Shown in pieces: positions 259-50,665 of a stretch of 64,000 nucleotides of DNA. Source of the stretch: Brachynemurus nebulosus. Its lineage: Eukaryota; Arthropoda; Insecta; Neuroptera; Myrmeleontidae. The stretch is taken from positions 3,732,482 through 3,796,481 of the forward strand of contig JAPWDM010000017.1 in NCBI GenBank assembly GCA_035578155.1. The letters are read 5' to 3'. The position numbers were made by a program, and so were the translations under genes. The first letter of the stretch is position 1; every line of letters starts with the position of its first letter. The notes beneath the pieces were generated by a model, which saw nothing but the letters and a program-made list of their open reading frames with translations, did no database searches and was not told the origin of the DNA.

Positions 259-295
259 CCACACTTCCTAGGGAGCAACCCAAGTAGTAACAGAA

Positions 296-3200
296 ATGGC
301 TATCATACAGTGGAACTGTAATGGTGTTAAGCACCATTACTGTGAATTGCAGATGCTTCTGGCTGAGCACACGCCTATGTGCGTGTGCCTCCAAGAGACA
401 CACTTAAAGCCGGCGGAACAATTTTCAATAAAAAATTATCATGTCCGCCGGCACGACGTACAGCCAGACATCAGGGCGAGGGGGGGTGTTGCCATCATCA
501 TTAAAGATGGCGTTCCTTTCCGGGACCACCCGTTAAACACCCCCCTACAAGCTATTGCAGTACAATTTTTAAAACCGCCCCAATTCACAGTATGCTCGGT
601 CTATTTACCAAACTTCGACTGGAACGTCGAAGACTTGACCGAGCTTACAATACAGTTACCACGACCATTTTTGTTACTAGGAGATTTTAATGCTCACAGC
701 CCCATGTGGGGCTGTAGCACAAGAGACGCCCGTGGAAGACTCATAGAACGGTTTCTAGATGAGTCTGAAGCGGTCTTGTTGAATTCCGGTCAAGGTACTT
801 TCATTAACGCAAGAACCGGTGAGCTGTCGGCTATCGACTTATCACTTGGCTCACCGGTCATGGCGCACCGTTATGAGTGGACGCTGGCGTCAGACTCATA
901 CGGTAGCGACCATATACCCATTATTTTGAATAGTACCACGCCGATGACTCCACAATCATCTTCGCCGAGATGGCGTCTCCGTCAAGCTGACTGGGACATG
1001 TACGTCGATTCATTCCGTACACCCGAGCTGACTGGAGACGTAGAAGATGATGTGGAGCAAATGTCCTCCAGTGTCATTGAAGCAGCACATAAGAGTATAC
1101 CTATGTCGTCCAACATTCCACCTAAACGTCGCTTACCATGGTGGAATGAAGTCGTGAGAGTAGCAGTTGCCGAGAAAAAGCGGGCGTACCACGAACTCAG
1201 GCGTCGCCCCACGCAGGAAAAGGTGATAGCCTACAAGCGTGCGCAAGCACGCTGTAAACGCACTATAAAAGAACAGAAGAGGCTATCATGGGAGCAATAT
1301 GTTTCGGCCATAAATACCTCCACCACCACCTCAGAGGTATGGAGAAGAGTGAGGGCCATTACAGGGAAATCCTCCCGTTCACCTATGCCCTCCCTTCTCA
1401 TCGTCGACGGTCGGAACATCACTGACCGCGCAGAAATAGCTAATTGTTTAGCTAAACACTTTGAGCGCGTCAGTGGCTCCCAAAACTATGACCCGGACTT
1501 CCTGCGGATCAAGATCGAACACGAACAAAACGATCTTGATTTTTTCTCAGATGAATCACTCCAGTATAACCAACCGTTTTCTATGCAAGAATTACTGGAG
1601 GCGCTTCGGGGATCTGGGGACACATCCCCTGGACCTGATGAGATCCCCTACGCCATGATCCGGAACCTGCCTTATCCTGGTAAGTGTAGGTTACTGGATC
1701 TGTACAACGAAATTTTTAGGCAAGGCGTTTACCCTCCGCAGTGGCGGGAAGCTACCATCATTCCGCTGCTAAAAGAGGGTAAAGATTCGTCGCAACTATC
1801 TAGCTACCGTCCAATATCCTTGACTTGCTGTTTCAGCAAGGTATTGGAAAAAATGGTGAACAACCGTCTCGTCTGGTGGCTGGAATCCCACAATCTCATT
1901 CCTAAACATCAATGTGGGTTCCGCCGATACCATTGGACTACGGACCATCTTGTTCGCCTCGAGAATGCCATTCAAGACGCCTTTCTCCAACGAAAACACC
2001 TTGTGGCCGTGTTTTTCGACTTGGAGAAAGCTTATGATATGACCTGGAGGTATGGCATTCTCAAGAAGCTGCACGACTGGGGTTTAAGAGGTAACCTCCC
2101 TCAGTTCGTAAAAAGTTTTCTGACTGACCGTTCTTTTCGTGTCCGGGTAGGTGACACTGAGTCTGAGGCCCACTCCCAGGAGAATGGTGTTCCTCAAGGC
2201 TCCACCATTAGTGTCACCTTGTTCTCCATCGCAGTCAGTCATATTGCAGCTTCAGCCCCAATTCGTCGTTGCTTGTACGTTGATGACCTCACAATTTTCT
2301 ATGCAGCCGATTCCATTGAGGATATCCAACAACGGCTGCAACAAGGCATCAACGAAGTGGTGACTTCTGCAGAAGCTCTTGGTTTTCGTTTCTCACCACA
2401 AAAAACATCGGTGGTTCACTTCTGCAGAAAGCGCAACGCACATGCGGATCCTGTTCTCACATTGAAAGGATCCAACCTTCAGTGCGTTGAAAGCGTCAGG
2501 TTTCTAGGACTCATATTCGACAAACAACTTACGTGGCGCCCACACCTCCAAGCCTTAGCTGCGAGTTGTCGCAGGACAATCAACATGCTTAAGTGCTTGG
2601 CTGGTGCATCGTGGGGTGCGGGCCGGGAGTCGTTGCTTCGCCTGTATCAATCGCTAGTTCTGACTAGGATTGATTACGGCAGCATTGCTTACTCCTCCGC
2701 CCGGGCGTCTGCGCTTCTACTCCTAGATCCTGTTCACCATGCAGGCATACGACTGGCTACGGGAGCATTTCGAACGAGCCCTTCTATGAGCCTCTGCGTA
2801 GAGTCGGGTCTGCCTCCGCTGCGACTGAGACGTGAGCGTCTCTTGCTCAATTATGCAGCGGGGGTATATGCAACACCTACGCATATCAATCACCCGACTC
2901 TATTTAGATACCGTTTACAGGGGCTCTACGGTCGACGTCCCACCATAAGTCGACCAGTGGCCGTTCGAACGCAGGAGTTATTAGAGAGTCTGCACTTACA
3001 GTTCGCCAAGGTACTTCCCAAACGTCCTATGGAAGTACCTCCTTGGCTGATCCCTAACGTAAGGTGTCGTTTCGACCTGACTGGTCTCAACAAGGAGGAG
3101 ACCAGTTCAATCGAATATCGATCCCGCTTTTATGAGATCATTAGCGAACTTGACTCTCTCTGCATATACACAGATGGTTCCAAAACAGCTACGGGTGTTG

Positions 3201-3958
3201 GAAGTGCCATCGTCATTCGTGACGATCCTCACGCTTGGTCACTTCCTCCCCAGGCCTCTGTGTATACTGCAGAATTATTTGCTATTCTGCAAGCCCTGCG
3301 ATTTTGTCAAACATCTGAAGACAGCGCATTCCTCATTTGTTCCGACTCGTTGAGCGCGTTGCAAGCGATCTGCCACTCTCATACCATCGATCCGCTGGTG
3401 CAGAACATCCGAACGTGTCTCTACATGCTCCGCCAAAAGTCTATCACCTTCTTTTGGATTCCCGGACATGTAGGGATACCTGGCAATGAACTCGCCGACC
3501 AGGCAGCACGTCATGCAGCCGAATTCGGTGAGCCACAGGACATTGCCATTCGCCCAGAGGATCTGAGAGTGTGCATACGATCCGCGATCGAACATAAATG
3601 GCAACGTGAGTGGAACAACCTCACGGCTAAGCTCAGACAGGTGAAACCTGAGGTCCGAAGAACTCCGGCACCTGTAAATCTGAGCCGGCGAGAGAGTGTG
3701 GCCCTGACGCGTTTACGCTTGGGCCACACGGCGTTAACACATCGTCATCTTCTCGCCGGTGAGGATCAGCCAAGGTGCGCCGCCTGCGGGACGGCGCTGA
3801 CCGTGAGGCATATAGTTGAGGAATGTGTAACCTTTGCGCCTTTGCGCCAGAGGTTGCAGCTCCCAGGTAGTGTAGCCGAAGCTTTAGCTTATGATGCAGT
3901 CTCTGAAAGAAAGATGCTTGAATTTCTCCGAAATTCGCATCTTCTTCAGAGGCTTTAG
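296..3958 (+). CDS. LINE ORF2 polyprotein: endonuclease, reverse transcriptase, RNase H
   Basis: A 1220-residue ORF that nicks target DNA, primes reverse transcription from the nick and degrades the RNA strand. APE endonuclease, residues about 1-215: WNCNG near residue 6, QETH at 33-36, GDFNAHS at 129-135, SDHIPI at 204-209. RT, about 430-740: YRPISL near 504, FDLEKAYD at 574-581 (motif A), GVPQGS at 631-636 (motif B), YVDD at 661-664 (motif C). RNase H, about 953-1080: D960 in YTDGS, E993, D1017 in CSDS, and a last acidic residue in LADQA near 1068. After it comes a C-X2-C-X7-H-X4-C cluster (C1161, C1164, H1172, C1177), as in other I-group LINEs. All catalytic acids I looked for are present and there are no internal stops, so the protein could be active. 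The ATG at 296 is chosen because the endonuclease fold starts at once after it. Confidence 0.95.
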   Translation: MAIIQWNCNGVKHHYCELQMLLAEHTPMCVCLQETHLKPAEQFSIKNYHVRRHDVQPDIRARGGVAIIIKDGVPFRDHPLNTPLQAIAVQFLKPPQFTVCSVYLPNFDWNVEDLTELTIQLPRPFLLLGDFNAHSPMWGCSTRDARGRLIERFLDESEAVLLNSGQGTFINARTGELSAIDLSLGSPVMAHRYEWTLASDSYGSDHIPIILNSTTPMTPQSSSPRWRLRQADWDMYVDSFRTPELTGDVEDDVEQMSSSVIEAAHKSIPMSSNIPPKRRLPWWNEVVRVAVAEKKRAYHELRRRPTQEKVIAYKRAQARCKRTIKEQKRLSWEQYVSAINTSTTTSEVWRRVRAITGKSSRSPMPSLLIVDGRNITDRAEIANCLAKHFERVSGSQNYDPDFLRIKIEHEQNDLDFFSDESLQYNQPFSMQELLEALRGSGDTSPGPDEIPYAMIRNLPYPGKCRLLDLYNEIFRQGVYPPQWREATIIPLLKEGKDSSQLSSYRPISLTCCFSKVLEKMVNNRLVWWLESHNLIPKHQCGFRRYHWTTDHLVRLENAIQDAFLQRKHLVAVFFDLEKAYDMTWRYGILKKLHDWGLRGNLPQFVKSFLTDRSFRVRVGDTESEAHSQENGVPQGSTISVTLFSIAVSHIAASAPIRRCLYVDDLTIFYAADSIEDIQQRLQQGINEVVTSAEALGFRFSPQKTSVVHFCRKRNAHADPVLTLKGSNLQCVESVRFLGLIFDKQLTWRPHLQALAASCRRTINMLKCLAGASWGAGRESLLRLYQSLVLTRIDYGSIAYSSARASALLLLDPVHHAGIRLATGAFRTSPSMSLCVESGLPPLRLRRERLLLNYAAGVYATPTHINHPTLFRYRLQGLYGRRPTISRPVAVRTQELLESLHLQFAKVLPKRPMEVPPWLIPNVRCRFDLTGLNKEETSSIEYRSRFYEIISELDSLCIYTDGSKTATGVGSAIVIRDDPHAWSLPPQASVYTAELFAILQALRFCQTSEDSAFLICSDSLSALQAICHSHTIDPLVQNIRTCLYMLRQKSITFFWIPGHVGIPGNELADQAARHAAEFGEPQDIAIRPEDLRVCIRSAIEHKWQREWNNLTAKLRQVKPEVRRTPAPVNLSRRESVALTRLRLGHTALTHRHLLAGEDQPRCAACGTALTVRHIVEECVTFAPLRQRLQLPGSVAEALAYDAVSERKMLEFLRNSHLLQRL

Positions 3959-4777: not shown

Positions 4778-6004
4778 TTACTATTTGATTTTAAAAATGT
4801 AATATATAAATTAACATGAATTATTACCTATTTTTCTCAAATATCAGTCAAATATCAGCACCGAATCTATATGTCAACATTTCAACACAAAGACGAGTTG
4901 ATTTGAAATTCTGATTGTTGAAATATTAGTTTAAATTCAAGCTAATTTGGCAGTATTGTACATATCTGTGGTGCTATCTGGTTAAAAACGCTGACACAAT
5001 AGAATTTTTAAAATAAAAAATTATTAAATATATTTAAAGAATTTGTTTAAATAATTAAATTATTAAAAATATTAATAATTTTAAAAATATTATTATAATT
5101 TTTTAACGTAATGTGTTAAATAAAGAGATTAAAATAATGTGCAGTATTTAGGAAAAAAAAATCAATTCTACTACAATTTGAATTTGAAAGCAAAAATAAA
5201 TTTTCGAAAACAAAATAACAGATCTAATCTACTTATACTAGAGATATTATGTTTACAAATGCATAAGGCTATTTGTGCACTACCAAAAATATAATTTTAA
5301 AATTTTATTTAATCAAAGAAATATTATAGTTTAATTAATTAAATTTAATAATATTACATTTATATAACCGTAGAAATTTATTAAGGCATTATTCTGAATA
5401 TTTATCCAAAGAAATTTGAAATATGATAGGTAGTAGAGTACTAAGTGTAGTAATACCCTTAAAATACGTGTATAATCAAAATAAATAAAAATAGGATTTT
5501 TCCAATACAACAGAAAGAGATAATACGATAAAAAGAGACTCTATATAAAAATTATTTTTGATTTTTCTTGAAAACCAGTTTATACAGAGGAAAAGTTTAA
5601 AAAGCTCGCTAATATAACTTCTTACAATTTTTTTGATAGTATAACAAAATTTTTGAAAAAGTTATAAATTCTGATCAAAAAACACAAAAAAAGACTTTAA
5701 AGCCCAAAATAGTCTACATTTTGAAGATAAAACATATTAGATTCCTTATGGCTACTCTCAATTCTCGCAAAGTGCACCGAGTACGAGAGTGTAAAAGGTC
5801 ATTTCATGGTTCTTCCTGGCTGGTGTTATAACGGTTTTCCGACTTTAGCTAACTTTAGCGCTTACTTCGTCGAGGAACTTCGATCGAGAGTGTAGAGAAG
5901 GCATCAGATTATCATGTAGTAATAAAAAAAAAAAAAAAAAAACATTCAATGATTCATTTATTCATTCAAAATATTTCTTAAAAACGCAATTCAAAAACAA
6001 GTAG
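4778..6004. other. AT-rich intergenic DNA with one poly(A)-ended insertion
   Basis: No coding region is supported. From about 5740 to 5942 the base composition becomes more even and the stretch ends in a 20-base A run at 5923-5942. This is the look of a short, 5'-truncated retrotransposed tail (LINE or SINE) of unknown family. The rest is low-complexity A/T sequence. Confidence 0.4.
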
Positions 6005-6388
6005 GCTGCCGTGTGACACGAATGTCGTGTATCTTTAGATACAGCAATTTCGCGTAACAACGTTTAAAGGATTATACTCAATCCCTAGTATATATATTGA
6101 CAATAAAATTAATTAATTTGTTAATAATAATATAATAATTAATCTATTGTATTTTTAAATTTTTATTTTGATTGTATCACATTCCTTATTTCTTATATTT
6201 TCAAATGGTATATTTATATGTTATTAAATCAATACTGCAACATTGAATCAATAACGCATAATAAAAATCAATTATCTTAGATATTTAATAATATTTGAGC
6301 GAATTAAGATAATACGATATTTTATTCAAATCAAGTTTTCTCAAAACTATAATTTCTGAGATACGTGAGATTAGTGTGACACGGCAGT
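6005..6388. mobile_element. Short TIR element (MITE), about 0.38 kb
   Basis: The left end reads CTGCCGTGTGACACGAAT and the right end, reverse-complemented, CTGCCGTGTCACACTAAT; similarity continues for roughly 30 bp with a small indel. GTAG occurs directly outside both ends and may be the target duplication. The interior is AT-rich and non-coding. The superfamily is not assigned because a 3-4 bp duplication fits several. Confidence 0.6.
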
Positions 6389-22745: not shown

Positions 22746-23505
22746 AGCACTGTTTTATTTTCCGGCCACTGAGCCAACTGACCATTTTTTACATTTTTCA
22801 CGTTTCAGCTACAGTTAAACTTTTATTATCCAGTTGCATAAAAAACTTGACTTTACAAAAATACCATACTTTCATTTTGTTAATTTTGCGACATTCTCGA
22901 TCCAAATGATCAAAGTATGTCCTAAGTGCCAGTACAAAAACTGAACTATCTTTAAAGTTTAGAGGATATCGGACAAGTCATAGCTTTAATTTTAAATGAA
23001 AGTTTCCAATAATTATTTTCAAGTAGCAACATTATACATACGTATATTAATTAGTAAACTATTGATTCGTCTTATGCATAACCTTCATACCCTATAATTA
23101 CATTGATGTAACTGCATTATTAACTAACAGCAATTAAAATGGATGTCTTTTGATGTGAACGAGAATAAAAACTACTTTTTTCAAATGAACCAATATTGTT
23201 CTCAGTTCTTCCAATGAATAATTGTAGGTATATAATTAGACTATTTAAATGAAATATCTTTAACTACTCTACCAGTACATCTATAATACTATATTTGCTA
23301 GAACCCTTTGCTTTTGGTCTATTTACAGAGACCTTAGCTATTAAATAGCAGCCTAGTTAATAAAGTATTAAACAACAAACCGATAATAATAATAGGTCTA
23401 GATGCGTGCACAATAAAATGACAACATGAAAGGAATATGTATGTAAATTACATTCATTATATAAACAGATAAATATTGTATATACCAAAACAACTCATAC
23501 ATGAG

Positions 23506-23508
<3 letters not shown>
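22746..23508. other. Intergenic DNA, no feature seen
   Basis: AT-rich and non-coding, up to the (TA)n tract that hosts the errantivirus. Confidence 0.45.

Positions 23509-23584
<76 letters not shown>
23509..23584. repeat. (TA)n tract, left flank of the errantivirus
   Basis: Alternating TA directly abuts the 5' LTR. The same kind of tract continues after the 3' LTR at 28461-28586, so the provirus appears to have landed inside one microsatellite. Confidence 0.93.
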
Positions 23585-23586
<2 letters not shown>

Positions 23587-23984
23587 TTATGAACTACAAT
23601 ATAGCCATATCTTCATATTACACTAAATTCAACATTAGCATACGTGACAAACAACAAGTATAATTTCAAGTGAAAGGAAAGTCCAACTTCTGACCTATAT
23701 TCATTAAGTATATCCGCAGGACACACGACCAATGTCATTCCAGAAAGTAACAAGAAATTCAACCGTATATAAGTCACGATACAAATGGGCCAAGCAGCAG
23801 TTGCTCACCATCCGTCTTACCGAAGTCAACTACATACCAGATGGTTAACTTGAATACCGCGGCGGTGATAAAGTAAATTATTTTATTACAAATTATATTG
23901 TAAAAAATTGTATTCTTGTAAAAATTTGTATTTTGTGAAATAAAATTCTTTTTTTAAACATAAACTTCTGCCGAGTTTATATTT
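23585..23984 (+). repeat. 5' LTR of the errantivirus
   Basis: It begins AGTTATGAAC, as LTRs of this group start with AGT. A TATA box (TATATAA at 23766-23772) and a polyadenylation signal (AATAAA at 23939-23944) mark the promoter and the end of R. The last T may belong to the primer site. Confidence 0.93.
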
Positions 23985-24001
23985 GGCGCAGCCGGTAGGA
24001 T
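23984..24001 (+). promoter_or_regulatory. Primer binding site (17.6/297-like)
   Basis: TGGCGCAGCCGGTAGGAT directly follows the LTR. It is close to the primer site known from the 17.6 and 297 elements, which is assigned to a serine tRNA. Confidence 0.85.
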
Positions 24002-24182
24002 AGTGCAGGAAAATTTCGTAAACCTCCACTATCTAAGCGCTCATCGTAAAGTTAACGCGACAGTTAAACTACGAGTGTCTTTTAAGACTTTGGAGCCGAA
24101 CCTACAAACCAAACAAATAAAATATACAACTCGACTGGAACACCAACAGTGGTTTGGAGCAACATATTCCCGGACAACGACA

Positions 24183-24430
24183 TTCTCGACGGCTTATCGA
24201 GAAGTAGTGGCGATACATCAATTCACGACGGTTTATCGTGAAGAAGGTCGACTTCGCTCAGTCAACGTCTAGAACTGCACGTACGCTGGTTCAACTGGAT
24301 ATGTGGAAATCATCAGTTCTATTGTTGTAAGTCTTTACTTTCCTATATTATTGCATGATTTCCGATGCCTAAACCTTACCCCACTGCTAAAAGTATTAAA
24401 TTCCTGAAGAAAAACGACGGTTTATCGTTT
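24183..24430 (+). promoter_or_regulatory. Three hairpins with a shared CGGYTTA loop (candidate packaging signal)
   Basis: Hairpin 1: TTCTCGA 24183-24189, loop CGGCTTA, TCGAGAA to 24203. Hairpin 2: TTCACGA 24222-24228, loop CGGTTTA, TCGTGAA to 24242. Hairpin 3, inside the first gag codons: AAACGA 24412-24417, loop CGGTTTA, TCGTTT to 24430. The stems differ in sequence but stay perfectly paired, while the loop is kept. Leader and early gag is where retroviral packaging signals usually lie. The function is inferred. Confidence 0.6.
24301..24332 (+). promoter_or_regulatory. Leader mini-exon and splice donor for env
   Basis: An ATG at 24301 is followed by 26 nt to a consensus donor GTAAGT at 24327-24332. 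In unspliced RNA this is a nine-codon upstream frame whose stop lies within the donor. Joined to the acceptor at 26475 (26 + 10 nt = 12 codons before 26486), it would be in frame with env and add a start plus a hydrophobic stretch. Gypsy env is known to be made from a spliced RNA; the exact sites here are my reading. Confidence 0.6.
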
Positions 24431-26464
24431 AATTCAGATTCAAGTACATCAAGTAGTTGTGACTTCGCTAATAATATTGAAATTATTAATAATACTGAAT
24501 CAAACAATTTAAGTGAAAATTTAGAAAATATGGCACAACCTAGACTAGTATCTATCGATCAATCAGCTAACGCAGTAGAAACTTTATTAAAAAACTTTCA
24601 AATCCCTGATATTATTAAAACAATTATTCCTTATGACGGCAATAGAAGTAATTTGTTTAATTTTATCGATAGCGTTGATATGGCTGTTGGTCTATTATTT
24701 AGTTTAGTTGACGATAATTTAAAAAACCTTTATAGTAACGAAATTAGAAAAAAAATAATAGGTCCAGCAAATGACGTACTAAATCAGTATGGTAGAGTGA
24801 GAAATTGGGATAGCATCAAAGAAATTTTAATAGGGCATTATGCAGATAAGAGAGATGAATATAGTTTGGCTCGGGATTTATACTCGCTAACTCAAGGAAA
24901 TCAATCGGTTGAATTATTCTTTAGTAGAGTTAATGAAGTATTAGCCCAACTTATAAATAATATTTCTCTAACGAATACTGACGAGACTGTTAAGAAAGTC
25001 AAAATAGAACTTTATAATCAAGCAGCACTAGATTGTTTTCTAACAGGACTTAATAGGAATATAGGAAACATTGTTCGTGCTTTCCAGCCTAAGACACTTG
25101 GAGAAGCATGGCAATGTGTACAGAGGGAATTAAACGTTTATTACAAACAAACTCAATACGGAAACGTTAGGCCGCAACCAGAAGACACTAACACACCACC
25201 GAAACAAATTATTCGTCACGTATACACACCTACACAACCACAAATTCCACATACACCAAGACAACATTTTAATACGAATATACAACCTGTTCAAAACGTA
25301 TTCGGAAACCATCCTTGTTTAGAATATGTACCCCAAAATCAAAGAGTTTACAATAATTTTAATCAAAATCGACCTCAACAAAATTACCATACAATACAGC
25401 AAAGTCCAGTCCGTCCGCAACAACAAACACAACCTAATAGGTTTACCCCCGAACCTATGGATACAACGTCAGGTAATACTAGACGAATCAATAATAATAA
25501 CCATCCATTTAGACAAACGGAACCACCCAGGGTAATTTCAAAAGAATTGTTCAATACTGAAAATAATTGTTACGAACAGAAATACTATTACGAACCAACA
25601 GAAACAGAAATAGAATCAACAAATCCGTTAGAATATCAATTCAACGAAGAACCCAAATCAGTGGAATTCGACCAAACTGACCTAAACAACATAAACTACG
25701 AATCCGCCGGATACGTAGAATTAAATTTACAACAGACCAAGAACGGGACGTTACCATACATAATAATAAAAAACGGACCACAGAGACTAAAATTCTTAAT
25801 AGATACAGGAGCTGACAATAATTTTATAGACCCAAAGCATGTTGAAAATCTAACTTTAATCCCGACAGACGTAGAAGTAAAAACGGCACTCAAAACACAC
25901 AAAATTAATAATAAAATACGCATCTCATACTTAAACGAATTAGATAACACAGAGCCATTAGAATTTCTCGTATTTAAATTTCATTATTATTTCGATGGCA
26001 TCATAGGAAACCAAACATTGAGACAATTGAAAACAAAAATAAACTACAATAAGCATACAATACAATTCGGGCGAGCTATTAACCGACTATATTACAAATC
26101 GTGCATGACACCGATAGTTTTTACATTAGAATCACAGAAACAAAACATGATTGAAGTATCCACTTTAATAAAAAATGGAGACATACTGACCCCTACTATT
26201 AAACTAAATCCCCAAGTAAAAACTGCTAATAGAATATACACTGCACATAAAAAACAAAAACAAACGTTAATAAAAAACAACAATAAACGAAACGATCCAC
26301 CACAACTAAACATAGGAGACACAGTTTATGTTAAAAATATACAACGTAACACGAAATTATTACCTCCGTACAATGCAAAAAAAGTAACTGACGACAATAA
26401 ATTAACCTTTAAAACAAAGAATTACAAATATCACAAAGCCAAAATAAAACCTAAAAGAAAGTAA
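24365..26464 (+). CDS. gag-pol (deleted): Errantivirus gag-protease fused to the integrase C-terminal tail
   Basis: A 699-residue frame. Residues about 1-60 are Ser/Asn-rich; 65-265 are the Gag capsid-like region; 265-400 are Gln/Pro/Asn-rich and include EPMDTTSGNTR, without a zinc knuckle, as usual for errantivirus Gag. The aspartic protease follows with LIDTGADNNF (D480), ending near 590. A short pre-RT stretch (NGDILTPTIKL) then passes directly, near residue 618 (about base 26219), into the integrase end: DPPQLNIGDTVYVKN and the basic KAKIKPKRK. RT, RNase H and the integrase zinc and DDE domains are absent, and the junction is in frame. Gag and protease share one frame here, whereas related elements use a frameshift. 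It could supply particles and protease but not reverse transcription. Confidence 0.9.
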   Translation: MPKPYPTAKSIKFLKKNDGLSFNSDSSTSSSCDFANNIEIINNTESNNLSENLENMAQPRLVSIDQSANAVETLLKNFQIPDIIKTIIPYDGNRSNLFNFIDSVDMAVGLLFSLVDDNLKNLYSNEIRKKIIGPANDVLNQYGRVRNWDSIKEILIGHYADKRDEYSLARDLYSLTQGNQSVELFFSRVNEVLAQLINNISLTNTDETVKKVKIELYNQAALDCFLTGLNRNIGNIVRAFQPKTLGEAWQCVQRELNVYYKQTQYGNVRPQPEDTNTPPKQIIRHVYTPTQPQIPHTPRQHFNTNIQPVQNVFGNHPCLEYVPQNQRVYNNFNQNRPQQNYHTIQQSPVRPQQQTQPNRFTPEPMDTTSGNTRRINNNNHPFRQTEPPRVISKELFNTENNCYEQKYYYEPTETEIESTNPLEYQFNEEPKSVEFDQTDLNNINYESAGYVELNLQQTKNGTLPYIIIKNGPQRLKFLIDTGADNNFIDPKHVENLTLIPTDVEVKTALKTHKINNKIRISYLNELDNTEPLEFLVFKFHYYFDGIIGNQTLRQLKTKINYNKHTIQFGRAINRLYYKSCMTPIVFTLESQKQNMIEVSTLIKNGDILTPTIKLNPQVKTANRIYTAHKKQKQTLIKNNNKRNDPPQLNIGDTVYVKNIQRNTKLLPPYNAKKVTDDNKLTFKTKNYKYHKAKIKPKRK

Positions 26465-26465
26465 T

Positions 26466-26485
26466 GTTGTTACAGGTTCTTAACA
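26466..26485 (+). promoter_or_regulatory. Splice acceptor for env
   Basis: TTGTTACAG ends at 26475, 11 bases after the gag-pol stop; the exon would start at 26476. Keeping the 3' end of pol in the deletion keeps this site and its context. Confidence 0.6.
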
Positions 26486-28051
26486 ATGACGAACGCGCAA
26501 AGAATAGAATACCACGACATATCGCACACAAAAGGACTTATCGCACTTAATTTAGGTACAACTAGAGTAGTTTCCCATTATAATAATCTAATACATATAA
26601 TTAACATAACTAACATTAGAGACACATTAGGGTACTTAAGAGATAACATTTATAATACTAGTCTTAACGAAACATTATTTTACAATACGAAAAATCTAAA
26701 GGATTTATACAACAAAATAGAGCGAAACTTAGAAAACTTAGAACCGAGGACAATTAGAAGTAAAAGAGGTTTGATAAACGCATTAGGGGCCGTAATAAAA
26801 GCAATATCTGGCAATATGGACAAGAACGACGCGATAGAAATCAACAAACAAATAGAAACCTTCAAAGATAATAGTTTGTTACTAAAGGACAGAATAGACC
26901 AACAACACAGATTAAACACACAGATGATCGAGCGATTTAATAACATCACGGATTTTATAAATACTGAACAAGCTAAACTTAAAATTTTAGCCAATGCTAT
27001 GAAAACATATCCCCAAATAGAACAACAACTGTTTCAGTCACAATACTATTTTTCCTTACAATCACAACTTCAATACTTAAACCAGCACGTTAACGACATT
27101 ATATTATCGATAGAACTAGCTAAGTTAAATGTGATATCTAGGCATATCCTTACAAAGAATGAATTAAAGTTAGTTTATGAAAATTTGAAAAGTAGTATCA
27201 ACATTATTAGTGATGAACACTTATATGAACTACTCAACCTAAAAGCCTACTACAACGGAACCAATATCATATTCGCTGTAATGATTCCACAGTTCAGGAA
27301 TAATATTTTTAATACTATCAAAATAAGACCCATCCCTGAAAACCATCAAATCATAAAACCAAAAACCAATATAATCCTGCATAACAAAACCCATTATCAA
27401 TTCCTAGAAAAGACTTGCAATAAGATAGAACAGGATTTTATCTGCCCACCTGTAATATTAACACCAAAGGAAGCTAACCGATGCGAAATAAAGATATTGG
27501 AAAACAAACCAGCACAATGTACGCTACATCGCACAATAGGAGAAGAATTCATAGAAGAAATAGAAGACAACCACATAATCGTCATAACTAATCATTCAAT
27601 CGACATCACGAACAACTGCGGAAAGAACATTACCAACTTCATTGGCAAACTACATATCATCGTAGACCAATGTCATGTAACGATCAACCAAATAACTTAT
27701 GGGACTCTAGACAATACCATCAACAACATAGTTTTGGAACAAATATTATATAACACTGTTAATATTACTGACATTTCTAAAGATATAAACTTAGATCTGT
27801 TACAGCTGAAACATCTAGAAAATACGGATACCATTCAATTTATCAAATATCAACATTACACCCACATGACCGTCACAGTCACCACCATTGGAATCTTAAT
27901 AGTAATCGGTACGAGTTACGTTACATGCAGAAGATGCAAGAGAGCAAAAACAACACAAGAATCAGTCCAATACATGATGGCACCTACGGCACCACCAATC
28001 GACAGGTCGTCAGTCGTTCAATTCCCCTTCAAAATTGAACTTCCATCTTAG
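26486..28051 (+). CDS. env: Errantivirus envelope glycoprotein (baculovirus F-like)
   Basis: A 521-residue membrane fusion protein, intact. A furin-type site RSKR at residues 91-94 is followed at once by a Gly/Ala-rich candidate fusion peptide starting GLINALG. A long Gln/Asn-rich helical stretch (about 110-210) and many N-X-S/T sites follow. A transmembrane segment lies near 462-480, with CRRCKR after it and a cytoplasmic tail of about 37 residues containing APTAPPI. The order is that of insect errantivirus and baculovirus F proteins. No signal peptide follows the ATG at 26486; it is probably supplied by the leader mini-exon at 24301. The frame is unbroken even though the polymerase is lost. 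Confidence 0.88.
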   Translation: MTNAQRIEYHDISHTKGLIALNLGTTRVVSHYNNLIHIINITNIRDTLGYLRDNIYNTSLNETLFYNTKNLKDLYNKIERNLENLEPRTIRSKRGLINALGAVIKAISGNMDKNDAIEINKQIETFKDNSLLLKDRIDQQHRLNTQMIERFNNITDFINTEQAKLKILANAMKTYPQIEQQLFQSQYYFSLQSQLQYLNQHVNDIILSIELAKLNVISRHILTKNELKLVYENLKSSINIISDEHLYELLNLKAYYNGTNIIFAVMIPQFRNNIFNTIKIRPIPENHQIIKPKTNIILHNKTHYQFLEKTCNKIEQDFICPPVILTPKEANRCEIKILENKPAQCTLHRTIGEEFIEEIEDNHIIVITNHSIDITNNCGKNITNFIGKLHIIVDQCHVTINQITYGTLDNTINNIVLEQILYNTVNITDISKDINLDLLQLKHLENTDTIQFIKYQHYTHMTVTVTTIGILIVIGTSYVTCRRCKRAKTTQESVQYMMAPTAPPIDRSSVVQFPFKIELPS

Positions 28052-28060
28052 GGAGGGAAG
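28051..28060 (+). promoter_or_regulatory. Polypurine tract
   Basis: GGGAGGGAAG sits directly before the 3' LTR and overlaps the last base of the env stop codon. Confidence 0.8.
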
Positions 28061-28460
28061 AGTTATGAACTACAATATAGCCATATCTTCATATTACACT
28101 AAATTCAACATTAGCATACGTGACAAACAACAAGTATAATTTCAAGTGAAAGGAAAGTCCAACTTCTGACCTATATTCATTAAGTATATCCGCAGGACAC
28201 ACGACCAATGTCATTCCAGAAAGTAACAAGAAATTCAACCGTATATAAGTCACGATACAAATGGGCCAAGCAGCAGTTGCTCACCATCCGTCTTACCGAA
28301 GTCAACTACATACCAGATGGTTAACTTGAATACCGCGGCGGTGATAAAGTAAATTATTTTATTACAAATTATATTGTAAAAAATTGTATTCTTGTAAAAA
28401 TTTGTATTTTGTGAAATAAAATTCTTTTTTTAAACATAAACTTCTGCCGAGTTTATATTT
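28061..28460 (+). repeat. 3' LTR of the errantivirus
   Basis: I found no difference from the 5' LTR on reading the two through. TATATAA is at 28242-28248 and AATAAA at 28415-28420. Confidence 0.93.
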
Positions 28461-29034
<574 letters not shown>

Positions 29035-34424: not shown

Positions 34425-36182
34425 GCAGAAAAAATTAAAGGATAAAAAAAATTCTAAATTTTTAGCGATTTTTCGAATGGCTGTATCTTCGTGAAAAATG
34501 GTCTTATTGGAGTCGTAAGCAAAGCAATTTAAAGCTGGAAGCTTCTAGTTTTGAGATCTTCCGATAAAAAAAATTTTCAAAGCATCGTGTTTCGCTCAAT
34601 CCTAATTAATACAATAAAAAAAAAAAATTTTCTAAAATTTTTCGGTTCCTTTTTTTGGTCCACGGAATTGGAAAAAAGTTTTCCGATTTAACCACTATAT
34701 GGATCGGAAAACTTGTTCATTTAGCTTTAATTTGCTTTTCCTTAGACCTTTATACGACCACTTCTTGCTGAGATATCGGACTTTGAATGGAAAAGGATCA
34801 TTTCGTCTTTGACCATCGATATCCTAGCAACCAATGATCACACAGAAAATTGAATGTGTGTTCTAAAGACTCAAACAAATTCTCTATAAGGATTAGCCAT
34901 TGCTCTTTCAGGAAAAATTTTATTGCATACTCTACATAAATTTGAGAAATCAAGAAAAAAAGAACTTTTGGTGGCTTTTTGGAAAATCAAGCGCTGAATT
35001 AAAAATTTCGAGAAAACCATTAATGTTAAATGTGCCTTTTACAGTTCAATATATCCACAAAAACCTCACCGAGTTTCAATTTAATCCATCCAGCCGTTTT
35101 TTTGTTTCATTCGATTGAATTTTTGAAAAAATTAAAGGATCATTTTTTTGGTCTTAAACTTTCATAATTTTGAACAAAATGAAAAAAAAAATTTCACAGC
35201 TTTTTTCACATTTTTATCAACAACAGTATTTAAATTTATAAAAAAAGAAAATTTCTTAAAAAATTTTCAAAAAAAAATTTTTTTTAAAGAATTTTTTGAA
35301 AAAATTTTTTAAAAATTTTTTTGAAAATTTTAGAAAGAAATTTTTTTTTTTTTAAATTTTCTAAGAAATTTTCTTTTTTTTATAAACTTAAATAAGCTGC
35401 TATTGATAAAAATGCGAAAGAAGCTGAAAAAACTTTTTATTTCAGTTTGTTCAAGATTATAAAAGTTTAAGACCAAAAAAATGATCCTTTATTTTTTTCA
35501 AAAATTCAATCGAATGAAACAAAAAGGCGGCTGGATGGATTAAATTGAAACTCGGTGAGGTTTTTATGGGTTTATTGAAATGTAAAAGGCACACTTTAAC
35601 GGTTTTCTCGAAACTTTTAATTCAGCGCTTGATTTTTCAAAAAACCACCAAAAGCTCTTTTTTTCTTGATTTTTCAAATTCATTTAGAATATGCAAAAAA
35701 AACTTTTTTCTGAAACCAGAATAGCTAATCCTTGTAGAGAATTTATTCGAGTTTTAAAACACACCTTCAATTTTCTGTGTGATCATTGGTTGTTGAGATA
35801 TCGATGGTCAAAGACGAAATGATACTTTTCCATTCAAAGTCAGATATCCCAGCGAAAAGTGGTCGTGTGAAGGTCTGAAAAAAGCAAATTAAAGCTGAAC
35901 GAACAAGTTATCCGGTCCATATGGTGGATAAGTCGGAAAATTTTTTTCCAAGTCCGTGGACCAAAAAAAAAGTAACCGAAAATTTTCGAAAATTTTTTTT
36001 CAGTGTATACATATGTTAGGATTGAGCGATACACGTCTCAAAACTAGAAACCAGGTCTCAAGACTAGAAACTTTCAGCTTTAAATTGCTTTGCTTACGAC
36101 TCCGATACGACCATTTTTCACGAAGATACAGCTATTCGAAAAATCGCTAAGAGTTTTTTTTTGTTCCATCAATTTTTTCCGC

Positions 36183-44675: not shown

Positions 44676-44679
44676 TTAA

Positions 44680-46926
44680 AAAACGCCGTGAGCAGCGGGT
44701 CCCCATCACGGAAGTCGAATTTTTCCCTTCATCTTTGGTATTGAATGTCTACAAGCGAAATGTGATTGAAAGTCTACAAGCGATTTGTCATTTTGGTGGT
44801 TTCAAAACTGATGATGAATGTCCGGCTGATCGGGGCTTTAAAAAAAGGTGTTAAGTTTTTAAGGGCTGAATCTCAGTTAATTTCAATTTTGTGCCGATAG
44901 CAGTTAGCAGGAAAAAGCCAACACAATTCGTACGATGGCATTCCTACCCATGCTTAGCCGCCAATTGCCTTTGTGTTTTATTTATAAATATTAAAAAAGG
45001 ACCTTAAATAGTAAACTGGAAGGCCCTTATGAAGATATTATTTTTTTTCAAAAAATTCCAAAATTTATATTTTATAAATAATAAAAATCCAAAATTCCTA
45101 ATTTATAAATAAACAGTGACTTTAATAAAATTTCAAAATTAGTGACTTTAATAAAATTTCAAAATTACTTAATATGTATGTATTTCATTTGTTATAAAAG
45201 TAAATCCACTTTTTTTTAAATTTTTTAAAATTACTATTCCCCTACTTGTATTTAGAATAAAAATAATGCATTTAAAACACATTTAACGATAGCATTCAAT
45301 TCCGATGTAAAAATGGAAGAAGTGGGGGGGAAAAGTAATGTGGACTCCCTAAAAGGTACTAGCTGGAAACTAACTGAATACACGTACAAAATTTCAGCCC
45401 TCTAGGTTTCCTTAGAGAGTCTCTAGACGTGTTAGAAAACAAGCAAAAAAATTAAGGAAATATTGGCGTAAAAATCGTGGGGGTAAGGGTTAAAAGTTGA
45501 AACCTCCAAAAAACAGTGTCTGGCTGTTAGCTTAACCTGTACACAAAATTTCAGCCCTCTAAGTTTATTTGGGGAGATTTTGACCCGAACGAAACTGTTA
45601 AAAAACAAGAAAAGTCAAGTTCTTTTGGGTATAAAAATGGTGGGGGTAGGGGTTAAAAGTCGAGACCCCCAAAAGGCACCCCCTTGATACTATCTCAATC
45701 CGAATACAAGCAAAATTCAGTTTCCTAGGATGAATTGGAGGGATTAGGGGGGAAAACGATTTTCGCTGGATCTAACATGCCCCCTCCAGAATTAACGTAG
45801 AGGGTTTAAATTTGGTGCGTTGATAGAGTTCATATCTGGGTTGTGCTTTTTGAAGGTTTTAATATTTTACCCCCACCCCCCTCATTTTTAAGCTACAATT
45901 TCGTGCTTTTTTGACGTTTTCGAAGTTTGTACCACTCGCACAGGTTACCCGAATAAACCTAGCGGGCTGAAATTTTGTATTCGGATTGAGTTAGTATCAA
46001 GGGGGTGCCTTTTGGGGGTCTCCACTTTTAACCCCTACCCCCACCATTTTTATACCCAAAAGAACATGATTTTTCTTGTTTTTTAACAGTTTCGTTCTTG
46101 TCAAAATCTCCCCAAATAAACCTAGAGGGCTGAAATTTTGTGTACAGGTTAAGCTAATAGCCAGACACGGTTTTTGGAGGCTTCAACTCTTAATCCTTAC
46201 CTCCACGATTTTTACGCCAATATTTCCTTAATTTTTTTGCTTGTTTTCTAACACGTCTAGAGACTCTCTAAGGAAACCTAGAGGGCTGAAATTTTGTACG
46301 TGTATTCAGTTAGTATCCAGATAGTACCTTTTAGGGAGTTCACATTACTTTTCCCCCCCACTTCTCCCGTTTTTACATCGGAATTGAATGCTATTGTTAA
46401 ATGTGTTTTAAATGCATTATTTATATTCTAAATACAAGTAGGCGAATAGTAATTTTAAAAAATTAAAAAAAAAGTGAATTTACTTTTATAACAAATGAAA
46501 TACATACATATTAAGTAATTTTAAAATGTTATTAAAGTCACTGTTTATTTATAAATTAGAAATTTTGGATTTTTATTATTTATAAAATAGAAATTTTGGA
46601 ATTTTTTGAAAAAAAATAATATCTTCATAAAGGCCTTCCAGTTTACTATTTAAGGTCCTTTTTTAATATTTATAAATAAAACACAAAGGCAATTGGCGGC
46701 TAAGCATGGGTAGGAATGCCATCGTACGAATTGTGTTGCCTTTTTCCTGCTAACTACTTTTTTTAAAGCCCCGATCAACCGGACCCTCATCATCAGTTTT
46801 GAAACCACCAAAATGACAAATCGCTTGTAGAGTTTCAATCACATTTCGCTTGTAGACATTCAATACCGAAGATGAAGGGAAAAATTCGACTTCCGTGATG
46901 GGGCCCCGCTGCTCACGGCGTTTTTT
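44680..46926. mobile_element. Kilobase foldback with monomer-built arms, 2.25 kb
   Basis: The ends are AAAACGCCGTGAGCAGCGGG and its inverse. The arms run 44680-about 45725 and about 45965-46926, around a spacer of about 240 bp. TTAA lies next to both ends (44676-44679 and 46927-46930). Inside each arm, three units of about 165 bp repeat: an AAATTTCAGCCCTCTA block, a GGGTTAAAAGT block and a run of C or G. Frames here (such as one containing ADRGFKKRC) appear mirrored in the other arm and are not genes. Confidence 0.87.
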
Positions 46927-47282: not shown

Positions 47283-47900
47283 GGGGAATACCCTAAATCG
47301 GTGAAATGTCTTGTTGCTTAAAAGTTTTACGTTTAACGATCACAGGTTTCGAATGTCCTTTGCTATGTTGGCTAGCAGTGGACTGCTCTGAATTGTAAAT
47401 TAACATTGTTCGAAATGCAATTGTTTTACCACGAAAGTATAATTTTCAGCGAAAGAGATGTTAACTCTTTGACAACCAGGTAAATGGATAATATTTTGTG
47501 TAAGTTCAACTATTTTATACCCTTTAACCATGATAAGGTGTATGAGCTGGAGTATAACTTGCGGGTTGTATTGCGGTTGTGGTGGTTGTGTAGTAATTGT
47601 GTGGTGGCTCTGTGGTGGTTGTGTGGCGATTATGGCGTTTGTATGGCGGTTGTGAAGGCTGTGTTGCGATGGCAGTGGTGCTTGTGTGGCGATGGCGGCT
47701 GAAGTGAACAACTTTATCATTAATTCTATTGAAGTAGCAACTTACTGTAGGCAATGAATCGGTGGTGACATCTCGCGGTGTTTGTTGAACGCAATATCTA
47801 AATTACTCAATTTGGTGGGGTTCCTGTTCCCTGCTCTTATTATGGAAGATTATTAATTTAATATCGATTTTAGATAAAATATTGGAAAATTTGTTTTCAG
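47283..47900 (+). repeat. Left long terminal inverted repeat
   Basis: Inverse of 49953-50665. Shared landmarks in order are TTTGCTATGTTGGCTAGC, TTCGAAATGCAATTGTTTTA, TTAACTCTTTGACAACC, ATACCCTTTAACCATGAT, then the GGTTGTGGTGG minisatellite (about 47568-47700) and finally the 3' coding end of the zinc-finger gene. Confidence 0.8.
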
Positions 47901-48567
47901 TCAAAATATTGAGTACTTTTTCACCAGTCTCTGAAGTCTCGTATAAACGTTGTAATTCATCTATTAAAACATTAGGATTATGCCAGTATTTTATTTTTTT
48001 CGATTGCACATCAGCACTTTCAAAATCTTCCGAGCCGTTGTATTTGATACGCTTAGCAAGTAGTTCTTGGTCCGTTGAATTGACTGGACGTTTCATTGCT
48101 ATTCGTTCATTAGAATTCTCACCTTTATTTTGAGAGTCGGTGATTAATAAAATATCTAAAACAGTTTGCAGAGCTGTAGTTAACTTGGGAATGTTAACAT
48201 TTCCACTATCAGAAATGGTTAAAACCCTGTTATTAGATTCATCGCTTGGTGTGTAAATATTATTTTGATTTCTTAAATTATTAAATTTAGTTTGAATTGC
48301 TTTAGATGCAACTTTAGTTCTTTGTTCAAGCGGATTGGGCCTTTCTTCAGCTTTATTGTTTCGAAATTTATCATCAATATCATTCCTCCTCGTATCATAA
48401 CTAGGTAAGTCATCAGCCGTGTCTAATGCTTGTCTTTTTAGCAGATCAAGAGAGTAACTATTTTCAAACCTTTTTGGTGAAAATCCTCGCATATGTGTAG
48501 TTCTTATATGACGTGAAAGATAATCTTTCCGCGAGAAGCTTTTATAGCACTGCGTACACTCGAACAT
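47803..48567 (-). CDS. C2H2 zinc-finger protein of the long-TIR element
   Basis: A 254-residue intact frame. One N-terminal C2H2 finger: C4, C7, H20, H25 (C-X2-C-X12-H-X4-H) in CTQCYKSFSRKDYLSRHI, suggesting DNA binding. The middle is polar and rich in Asn, Arg and Ser, with KR/KK clusters (about 160-200) that could serve nuclear import. The C-terminal 50 residues are predicted helical (VLIDELQRLYETSETGEK) and end with REQEPHQIE. The final codons lie within the left inverted repeat, and the right repeat holds a plus-strand copy of them ending at about 50050. The family is not recognised. The ATG is chosen because the finger starts three residues later. Confidence 0.75.
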   Translation of the reverse strand: MFECTQCYKSFSRKDYLSRHIRTTHMRGFSPKRFENSYSLDLLKRQALDTADDLPSYDTRRNDIDDKFRNNKAEERPNPLEQRTKVASKAIQTKFNNLRNQNNIYTPSDESNNRVLTISDSGNVNIPKLTTALQTVLDILLITDSQNKGENSNERIAMKRPVNSTDQELLAKRIKYNGSEDFESADVQSKKIKYWHNPNVLIDELQRLYETSETGEKVLNILTENKFSNILSKIDIKLIIFHNKSREQEPHQIE

Positions 48568-49110
48568 TATAATAGATGTGTAAAGCTCAACTAGTCTTAC
48601 AAGATTAATTCAGAATGATGTTAACGATTACTTATATACTCCGGCACCACAAGTTACCCACCGCTACACCACCACCACCACCACCACATCTGAGTTGCTC
48701 ATTTTACCCCCTGAAGTAGCGGTTGGCATCCGGCTTACAAATTTTTACTCATTTTGCTCCCATTATGCTGTTTCGGTTAACTGAAATTAGTTCAGAAAAA
48801 TGAATGAAAAGCTATATGCAAGTGCCAGGTGACCGCATACCTACTGAACACCAACATTAAAATATTTGCTCCTGAATATAGGCAATTATATTGCGGTTCC
48901 AAGTGGCCCCATACCTACTGGTTGATAGAGAAGAGTTTTATCAAAATTCAAAATATAATTTGGTGGGAGGGGTTAATGGGTTGTAAAATAAGACTAACAT
49001 AAGAATTTATATGTAAAATAATTTATTTTTTAATACAATATACGTTATAATATTAAAATTAACACCTGATAGTTTCCTTAAGCTTAGATCAAACATCATA
49101 CATGTGATAG
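48568..49110 (-). other. Spacer between the two genes of the long-TIR element
   Basis: It holds the probable promoter of the zinc-finger gene, including a CACCACCACC run near 48672-48690 and TTATATACT near 48632. Nothing else is recognised. Confidence 0.4.
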
Positions 49111-49590
49111 CTATTTGCTAAATTCCACACTATGTAAAAAACCACTAGAATCATTTCCTTTATATGTAATAAAATACTGTCCTGTACGTAAACATTCCAT
49201 GGTGTGCTCATCCAAATCGATGAATCGTTTTGGAAGGAAGACTTGAGCATCTGCAAGTTCCACCGCAACTGCTAACCCATATCGAGTTTCCATGCGTCGT
49301 ACGTCGAGAATTTTCTACGCTTCATACAACTTGAGTGTAGATAGTGATTTGAATTGTTTACCAGCACCAAGTTTATTTAACTTCTCCAAAACCGGATCCA
49401 TTGTTTCAACAGTGGCAGTAACAGTGGCCCACAAATCACTTATACTTAACACCGTGTTGTTCAGACATTTTGCCAATACACTGCTAATTTCTGTTTCAGC
49501 ACATTGCTTAAATAATTTATGAGTTGCCACCACAAAGAACCACCGCAACCACCACCACCACGATTTTATCAAGAATCGATATTTAATCAA
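49111..49590 (-). pseudogene. Small second protein of the element, broken by one in-frame stop
   Basis: One continuous minus-strand frame from 49590 to 49111 is interrupted only by TAG at 49315-49317. The likely start is the Met at 49401 (MDPVLEKLNKL); codons before it run through GGTGGT repeats (WWWW) and look untranslated. After the stop the frame reads KILDVRRMETRYGLAVAVEL, then AQVFLPKRFIDLD, ending YITYKG-like (YFITYKG) and a short tail. The pattern of alternating strands with FLPKRF reminds me of small OB-fold proteins, which bind single-stranded DNA, but I cannot confirm that. A replication-linked role would fit a virus-like element. Confidence 0.5.
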
Positions 49591-49952
49591 TATTGACCAA
49601 TTCCACTATTACTCAAAATATCCATTATGCCTAATTACGCCGCTGGTCATTGCGTTATAAATAAGTGCTAATGTTGGTTTGACAACTGTGTAATTGGTCA
49701 ACACCTACACGTGGTACAGTTTATATAATTGCAAACACAGTTTGGAAATGGCATCATACATCGTTTACAATACATGCAAATTCGTTTTCGTTTCGACACC
49801 TATCACAATACTCGTAGAAGGAACACTTACTGTGGCGGTTGAAATTTACAAATACCACAAATCGGCATGTCGTGTTCTTGTTGTTTACCTTCTGGAACTC
49901 AACCAGCAAATGATATCCGGTTAAAAATTCAGTTGTGTTTATAGTATTTTGA
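49591..49952. other. Core segment of the long-TIR element without a supported gene
   Basis: A 76-codon plus-strand frame (49694-49924) with hydrophobic stretches is open but matches nothing I know; its status is undecided. Confidence 0.3.
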
Positions 49953-50665
49953 ATGAAATCAAATTTTCCAATACTTTATCTAAAATCGATATTAAATTAT
50001 TAATCTTCCATGATAAGAACAGGGAACAGGAACCTCACCAAATTGAGTAATTTAGATATTGCGTTCAACAAAGACCGCGAGATGTCACCACTGATTCATT
50101 GTCTACAGTAAATCGCTGCTTCAATAGAATTAATGATAAAGTTGTTCACTTCAGCCGCCACCACCACACAACCACCACCACCGCCACACAAACACCACCG
50201 CTGCTACACAAACACCGCCACCGCCAAACAAACACCACCGCCACCACCACACAACCACCACTACCGCCACACAACCACCACACGGCCACCACGCAACCGC
50301 CACAACCGCAACACAACCATCACATTTATGTGTTACGTCACCACCGCTATATAATTTGCTGAGTTATACTCCAAATCATACACCTTATCATGGTTAAAGG
50401 GTATAAAATAGTTGAACTTACACAAAATATTATCTATTTACCGGTGGTTGTCAAAGAGTTAACATCTTTTTCGCTGAAAATTATACTTTCGTGGTAAAAC
50501 AATTGCATTTCGAACCATGTTAATTTACAATTCAGAGCAGTCTACCGCTAGCCAACATAGCAAAGGATATTCGAAACTTGTGACCATTAAGCGTAAAACT
50601 CTTAAGCAACAACACATTTCACCCGAAAATTTAGTATTCCTTAAATCACTAGGTCACCCGAAAAT
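49953..50665 (-). repeat. Right long terminal inverted repeat
   Basis: Inverse of the left repeat, with a larger CCACCACACAACC-type minisatellite (about 50155-50325) and a 34-bp outer duplication (TCACCCGAAAATTTAG at about 50620 and 50654). Confidence 0.8.

What the first reader, a model, noticed from the sequence alone, without database searches (positions are those of the whole stretch)
23585..28460. Very young errantivirus that lost its polymerase but kept gag-protease and env intact
Seen: LTRs that read as identical, TATA on both sides, a 699-codon gag-protease frame fused in frame to the integrase tail, and an unbroken 521-codon env. Missing: RT, RNase H and the integrase core. Inference: a defective provirus recently mobilised by a helper, possibly a stable subviral lineage that contributes particles and envelope. 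Intact env with no polymerase suggests selection on env, or too little time for decay.
Basis: partly seen in the sequence, partly recalled or inferred. Interest (0 to 1): 0.85.

Follow-up and report, generated by a model that had tools for sequence, protein, structure and literature searches.

The report
Recent insect retrovirus missing its polymerase
A recently inserted copy of what looks like an insect endogenous retrovirus has lost its polymerase genes but keeps its particle and envelope genes open; deleted copies of this sort are a known kind, and whether this one multiplies as a lineage could not be tested here.

Summary
Window 23585-28460 is a 4,876-bp provirus with two 400-bp LTRs identical at 400 of 400 positions, an open gag-protease frame (699 codons) and an open F-type env (521 codons); no reverse transcriptase, RNase H or integrase core was found.

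Env lacks a hydrophobic start of its own. A leader ATG (24301), a GTAAGT donor and an acceptor ending at 26475 are in phase, the layout published for ZAM/Beagle-type elements. The deletion spared it.

Selection on env is not needed: at the oldest age the LTRs allow, under one stop codon is expected in both frames (arithmetic). Recent ZAM insertions with internal deletions and vertebrate ERV precedents make this an ordinary kind of deletion derivative. Whether the junction marks a replicating lineage is untested: the genome search did not complete in 14 calls. One oddity stays open: gag and protease share one frame, unlike the closest Gag relative.

The parts
23507..23584 (.). (TA)n array, 5' insertion flank
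23585..23984 (+). 5' LTR, 400 bp, TATATAA at 23766, AATAAA at 23939
   Evidence: identical to the 3' LTR over 400 bp
23984..23999 (+). Primer-binding-site-like sequence TGGCGCAGCCGGTAGG
   Evidence: read; resemblance to the tRNA-Ser type PBS of known errantiviruses is recalled, not tested
24301..24326 (+). Predicted env leader exon: 26 coding nt from the ATG; donor GTAAGT follows
   Evidence: in phase with the env acceptor; layout as described for ZAM/Beagle subclades (PMC12992720)
24365..26461 (+). gag-protease-integrase-tail ORF, 699 codons from first ATG (stop-to-stop 24359-26464)
24608..25165 (+). Capsid region (Ty3_capsid / Retrotrans_gag, aa 84-269 of P0002)
   Evidence: E 4.5e-8 and 4.2e-7
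25754..26041 (+). Retroviral aspartyl protease region (aa 466-561, DTGAD at aa 482-486)
   Evidence: (E 2e-4 to 5e-3, below Pfam cut-offs); 55% identity to P0038 over 159 aa
26237..26249 (+). Deletion junction: pol N-terminal region joined in frame to the integrase C-terminal tail
   Evidence: left side collinear with P0038/P0039 to Y627, right side matches P0040/P0041 tails from about K631
26249..26461 (+). Integrase C-terminal tail remnant
   Evidence: 39.7 and 37.0 bits; 31.2 bits, E 0.010
26465..26475 (+). Predicted env splice acceptor, TTACAG ending 26475
26486..28051 (+). env (F-type, Pfam Gypsy PF07253), 521 codons plus stop; RSKR cleavage-type motif and one C-terminal hydrophobic segment kept
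28050..28060 (+). Polypurine tract AGGGAGGGAAG abutting the 3' LTR
28061..28460 (+). 3' LTR, 400 bp
28461..28588 (.). AT-rich 3' flank with (AT)n array

Best explanation
This is a young, internally deleted copy of an env-carrying Ty3/gypsy element (errantivirus type, with the split-env leader layout published for the ZAM and Beagle subclades), in an insect, perhaps a fly (a guess). A full-length parent of about 7.6 kb lost about 2.75 kb, from just after the protease to the integrase tail. The likeliest route is a template jump during reverse transcription, in the cycle that made this insertion or in a recent ancestor. Polymerase and integrase made by a full-length relative then copied and inserted it. 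What remains (promoter LTR, PBS-like site, polypurine tract, gag-protease frame, env splice signals, env) could still be transcribed, packaged and spliced to give envelope, but this copy cannot move without help. Shown: structure, identical LTRs, open frames, missing domains, splice-site phase. Inferred: helper supply, template jump, expression.
For: Identical 400-bp LTRs and clear element ends. No RT, RNase H or integrase core found. Relatives with RT, RNase H and integrase domains (P0040, P0041) show what lies between the two sides of the junction: 916 aa in P0040. Env keeps 49 of 50 columns that are at least 90% conserved in 29 relatives; seven relatives scored the same way keep 47-49 of 49, or 48 of 50. 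Precedent in ZAM: of 17 new insertions in one Drosophila line, four had large internal coding deletions and four shared a pol C-terminal deletion (PMC10541861, passages).
Against: No full-length parent, RNA or second copy was seen, so the timing of the deletion is unknown. The single gag-protease frame is not explained by one pol deletion. The target-site duplication is ambiguous inside an AT array. The integrase-tail match that fixes the right side of the junction is modest.
Confidence: 0.72

Rival explanations
1. A replicating deletion lineage: many copies with this junction, spread for many cycles by a full-length helper, supplying Gag and Env to particles. (Overlaps in part with the best explanation, which allows the deletion to sit in a recent ancestor.)
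For: In-frame junction, and cis signals, env splice sites, gag and env kept. Precedents: 32 rhesus SERV-K/MER11 proviruses share a pro-pol deletion (PMC11379458, passage); [quoted passage not shown] ZAM-v2.
Against: An in-frame join happens by chance one time in three. The precedents are not close in make-up: 31 of the 32 SERV-K proviruses also carry a pol-env deletion, and the cattle D-type elements lack intact gag, pro, pol and env ORFs. No second copy could be looked for; none of 34 Env hits is above 60% identity and none of 4 protease-side hits carries this junction, so the database seems not to hold this species' family.
Confidence: 0.17
2. The deletion happened in the chromosome after a full-length provirus had inserted.
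For: Identical LTRs date the insertion, not the deletion; nothing at the junction excludes repair-mediated loss.
Against: Needs a second rare event within the short life of the insertion, whereas large internal deletions are seen in brand-new ZAM insertions (when in the cycle they arose is not stated in what I read).
Confidence: 0.1
3. Assembly collapse or chimera: the real provirus has pol.
For: The junction lies in A-rich sequence and the provirus sits between long AT arrays that are hard to assemble.
Against: The two sides join in frame, and the repeat finder shows no direct repeat of 20 bp or more in the element besides the LTRs. No reads were available.
Confidence: 0.07
4. Env (or gag) is kept by selection for the host, as a domesticated envelope or restriction gene.
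For: Open env with conserved motifs.
Against: Expected number of stops since insertion is below one even at the LTR age limit, so openness is uninformative; the LTRs are identical and gag is open too. Selection itself (dN/dS) was not tested.
Confidence: 0.03

Closest known systems
Errantivirus (Metaviridae), ZAM/Beagle subclade layout
   Same: LTR-gag-protease-env order, F-type env with furin-type site, env joined to a short peptide-coding exon upstream of gag (PMC12992720, passages); genus and species list in the taxonomy
   Different: This copy lacks RT, RNase H and integrase core; gag and protease in one frame; no RT to place on a tree
ZAM-v2 and other internally deleted ZAM insertions (PMC10541861, passages)
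   Same: Recent errantivirus insertions with pol or coding deletions; one deletion shared by several copies
   Different: ZAM-v2 loses positions 5494-6120 at the pol end, a part with no known domain; here the polymerase domains are gone
rover LTR-315 variant (PMC12992720, passages and section 13 part 1)
   Same: Structurally defective errantivirus variant with intact env, 19 insertions
   Different: The nature of its structural defect is not stated in the text I read; it is grouped with the generally older variants and its reporter was not expressed
SERV-K/MER11 shared pro-pol deletion (PMC11379458, passage)
   Same: Pol-region deletion shared by 32 proviruses
   Different: Primate HML-2-related ERV; 31 of the 32 also carry a pol-env deletion

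Membership tests
Errantivirus (env-carrying Ty3/gypsy) | LTRs with PBS and polypurine tract | tested here: met
   tRNA identity of the PBS recalled only
Errantivirus (env-carrying Ty3/gypsy) | Ty3/gypsy-type capsid | tested here: met
   Ty3_capsid 33.2 bits against a cut-off of 29.1
Errantivirus (env-carrying Ty3/gypsy) | Gypsy-type F-like envelope | tested here: met
   (PF07253, E 5e-20)
Errantivirus (env-carrying Ty3/gypsy) | RT, RNase H, integrase core, and an RT phylogeny within the genus | tested here: not met
   not found. It is therefore filed as a deletion derivative, not as an autonomous member
Errantivirus, ZAM/Beagle subclade | env spliced from a short peptide-coding exon upstream of gag | tested here: inconclusive
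   Sites present and in phase; no RNA, no tree
Trans-mobilised replicating deletion lineage | Several insertions sharing one junction | not tested
Domesticated env | Age beyond neutral decay time, with loss of LTRs or gag | tested here: not met
   LTRs identical, gag open
Domesticated env | Purifying selection on env in the host | not tested
   no DNA of relatives was fetched

The most novel reading that the evidence does not exclude
A stable subviral errantivirus lineage whose single-frame Gag-protease-integrase-tail protein and split-leader Env are its own, and which lives off the polymerase of a full-length relative: a Gag-and-Env-donating parasite rather than a bare RNA passenger.
Probability: 0.12. 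Interest if true: 0.55.

Novelty: new member of a known kind. Interest (0 to 1): 0.27.

Why it matters
If it is one of many copies with the same junction, it would give a natural insect system for how defective retroviruses spread on a helper while still giving Gag and Env back; the helper-dependent cases named in the passages I saw are mammalian. If it is a single copy, it only shows that a deleted genome was integrated.

Tried and rejected
Frameshift signal at the gag-protease boundary: AAATTTA at 25723-25729 is in frame, but the ORF holds 10 such in-frame heptamers, so its position carries no weight. Splicing as the origin of the deletion: the junction interval holds no AG, the commonest exon end (read), but without the parental DNA the intron borders cannot be read, so this is open rather than rejected. 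Other copies of the element in the window: none by blastn; further errantivirus-type pol: none by tblastn at E up to 0.01. Relatives in viral contigs by protein: none confirmed for three queries. Solved structures by sequence: none for the gag-protease and env frames. NCBIfam: nothing for those two frames. Host identity was not settled: the named Env hits are from Teleopsis, Harmonia and Condylostylus, so a fly is a guess. Relatives with gag and pol fused in one ORF would exceed the protein search's length limit (about 1,227 aa), so their absence means nothing; only the 7,994 best candidates were scored.

Full report
What is there. The element spans 23585-28460 (4,876 bp). Its two LTRs are 400 bp each and identical. 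The 5' flank is a pure (TA)39 array and the 3' flank is AT-rich. A PBS-like sequence follows the 5' LTR and an 11-base purine tract abuts the 3' LTR. Two long frames fill the interior: 24359-26464 and 26465-28051. They are in the same reading frame, parted by one TAA.

Proteins. The first frame holds a Ty3/gypsy capsid (above Pfam's cut-off) and an aspartyl protease region (below cut-off in Pfam) that is 55% and 49% identical to two related Pol fragments, P0038 and P0039. The second is a Gypsy-type envelope (E 5e-20); the four closest of 34 hits are 55-60% identical. No RT, RNase H or integrase domain is found in either frame, and four related Pol proteins find no further piece in the window at E up to 0.01.

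The junction. The first frame is collinear with P0038/P0039 up to tyrosine 627, and from about lysine 631 it matches the integrase C-terminal tails of P0040 and P0041. In P0040, 916 residues lie between the matching points, so about 2.75 kb is missing and the parent was about 7.6 kb. The tail match is modest (39.7 and 37.0 bits; E 0.010 for P0040), and no tail of a close relative was found.

Env expression. In the alignment of the window's Env with six relatives, five (P0004, P0006-P0009) start within a few residues of the window's first Met and one (P0005) starts later. The window's frame has no strongly hydrophobic start (best 19-residue mean near the N-terminus 0.58, against 1.83 at the C-terminal segment). 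Upstream of gag, an ATG at 24301 opens 26 coding nucleotides that end at a GTAAGT donor (after 24326). The exon after the acceptor ending at 26475 supplies the one nucleotide that completes the codon, so the two are in phase (chance one in three). This is the layout described for the ZAM and Beagle subclades, where env is spliced from a short peptide-coding exon upstream of gag (PMC12992720, passages). The deletion leaves donor, acceptor and about 225 bp before the acceptor in place, so Env expression may survive. No RNA evidence was available.

Is env under selection? Env keeps 49 of 50 columns that are at least 90% conserved in 29 relatives (the five weakest of the 34 hits, P0033-P0037, were left out). 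But zero differences in 400 bp bounds pairwise LTR divergence at about 0.75% (rule of three). At that bound about 0.7 stop-making changes are expected in both frames (my arithmetic, substitutions only). Open frames are what one expects with or without selection. Gene conversion between LTRs could hide age and was not tested.

Helper or lineage? An element with no polymerase and identical LTRs was almost certainly copied and inserted by enzymes made elsewhere, unless the deletion came later. That does not need a lineage: the deletion may have arisen in the same reverse-transcription cycle (inference). In one Drosophila line, four of 17 new ZAM insertions had large internal coding deletions, and four others shared a pol C-terminal deletion (the paper also speaks of five identical copies of that variant; PMC10541861, passages). 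A pro-pol deletion is shared by 32 rhesus SERV-K/MER11 proviruses, but 31 of these also carry a pol-env deletion (PMC11379458, passage). Trans-complemented defective elements are described in cattle, where the defective type lacks intact ORFs of all genes (PMC10924933, passages), and complementation is inferred in dogs (PMC6407205, passages). So deleted, helped copies are a known kind, while a gag-and-env-keeping, pol-less lineage is less closely matched by these. On re-checking I noticed the 31-of-32 figure and lowered the lineage rival from 0.20 to 0.17; the confidences overlap, since the best explanation allows a recent ancestor, and so do not sum to one.

What stays odd. Gag and protease share one frame here. 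Three related Gag proteins (P0042-P0044) are 465-508 aa long, and the closest, P0042, ends before the protease; the four Pol relatives begin at the protease, though such entries may simply start at a first Met or a contig end. The pol deletion cannot cause this. Either the family reads gag-pol as one frame, or a separate small change joined them. Fused relatives would have been too long for the protein search, so I leave it open. If the frame is real, every Gag made would carry the protease and integrase tail, which could hamper particle assembly and weakens the claim that this copy supplies good particles (inference).

Literature. Ten searches showed, in titles and abstract starts listed, no report of a pol-less, gag-and-env-intact errantivirus lineage; most lists were capped and only open-access papers are held. 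rover LTR-315 may be close, but its defect is not described in the text I read.

Verdict: observation confirmed with a small coordinate shift; interpretation partly supported; a new member of a known kind.

Noticed in passing
window 44678-46926, 47300-50623, 34456-36156, 57092-58695: Four long foldback structures with nested inverted arms (77-97% complementary; the 44.7-46.9 kb one 95-97% with a loop of about 265 nt), perhaps foldback-type transposons (25 longest pairs shown).
   Followed up: no
window 47803-48609 (-): 268-codon open frame with a single C2H2 zinc finger inside the 47.3-50.6 kb foldback.
   Followed up: no
window 272-3958 (+): Unbroken 1,228-codon LINE-type ORF with endonuclease, RT and RNase H domains.
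   Followed up: partly
window 24359-26464: Gag and protease in one reading frame, unlike the closest Gag relative, which ends before the protease; not explained by the pol deletion.
   Followed up: partly
window 23492-23507 and 28466-28489: AACTCATA...TATGAGTT-like palindromes beside the AT arrays on both flanks of the insertion; AT arrays of at least 20 bp occur nine times in the window.
   Followed up: no
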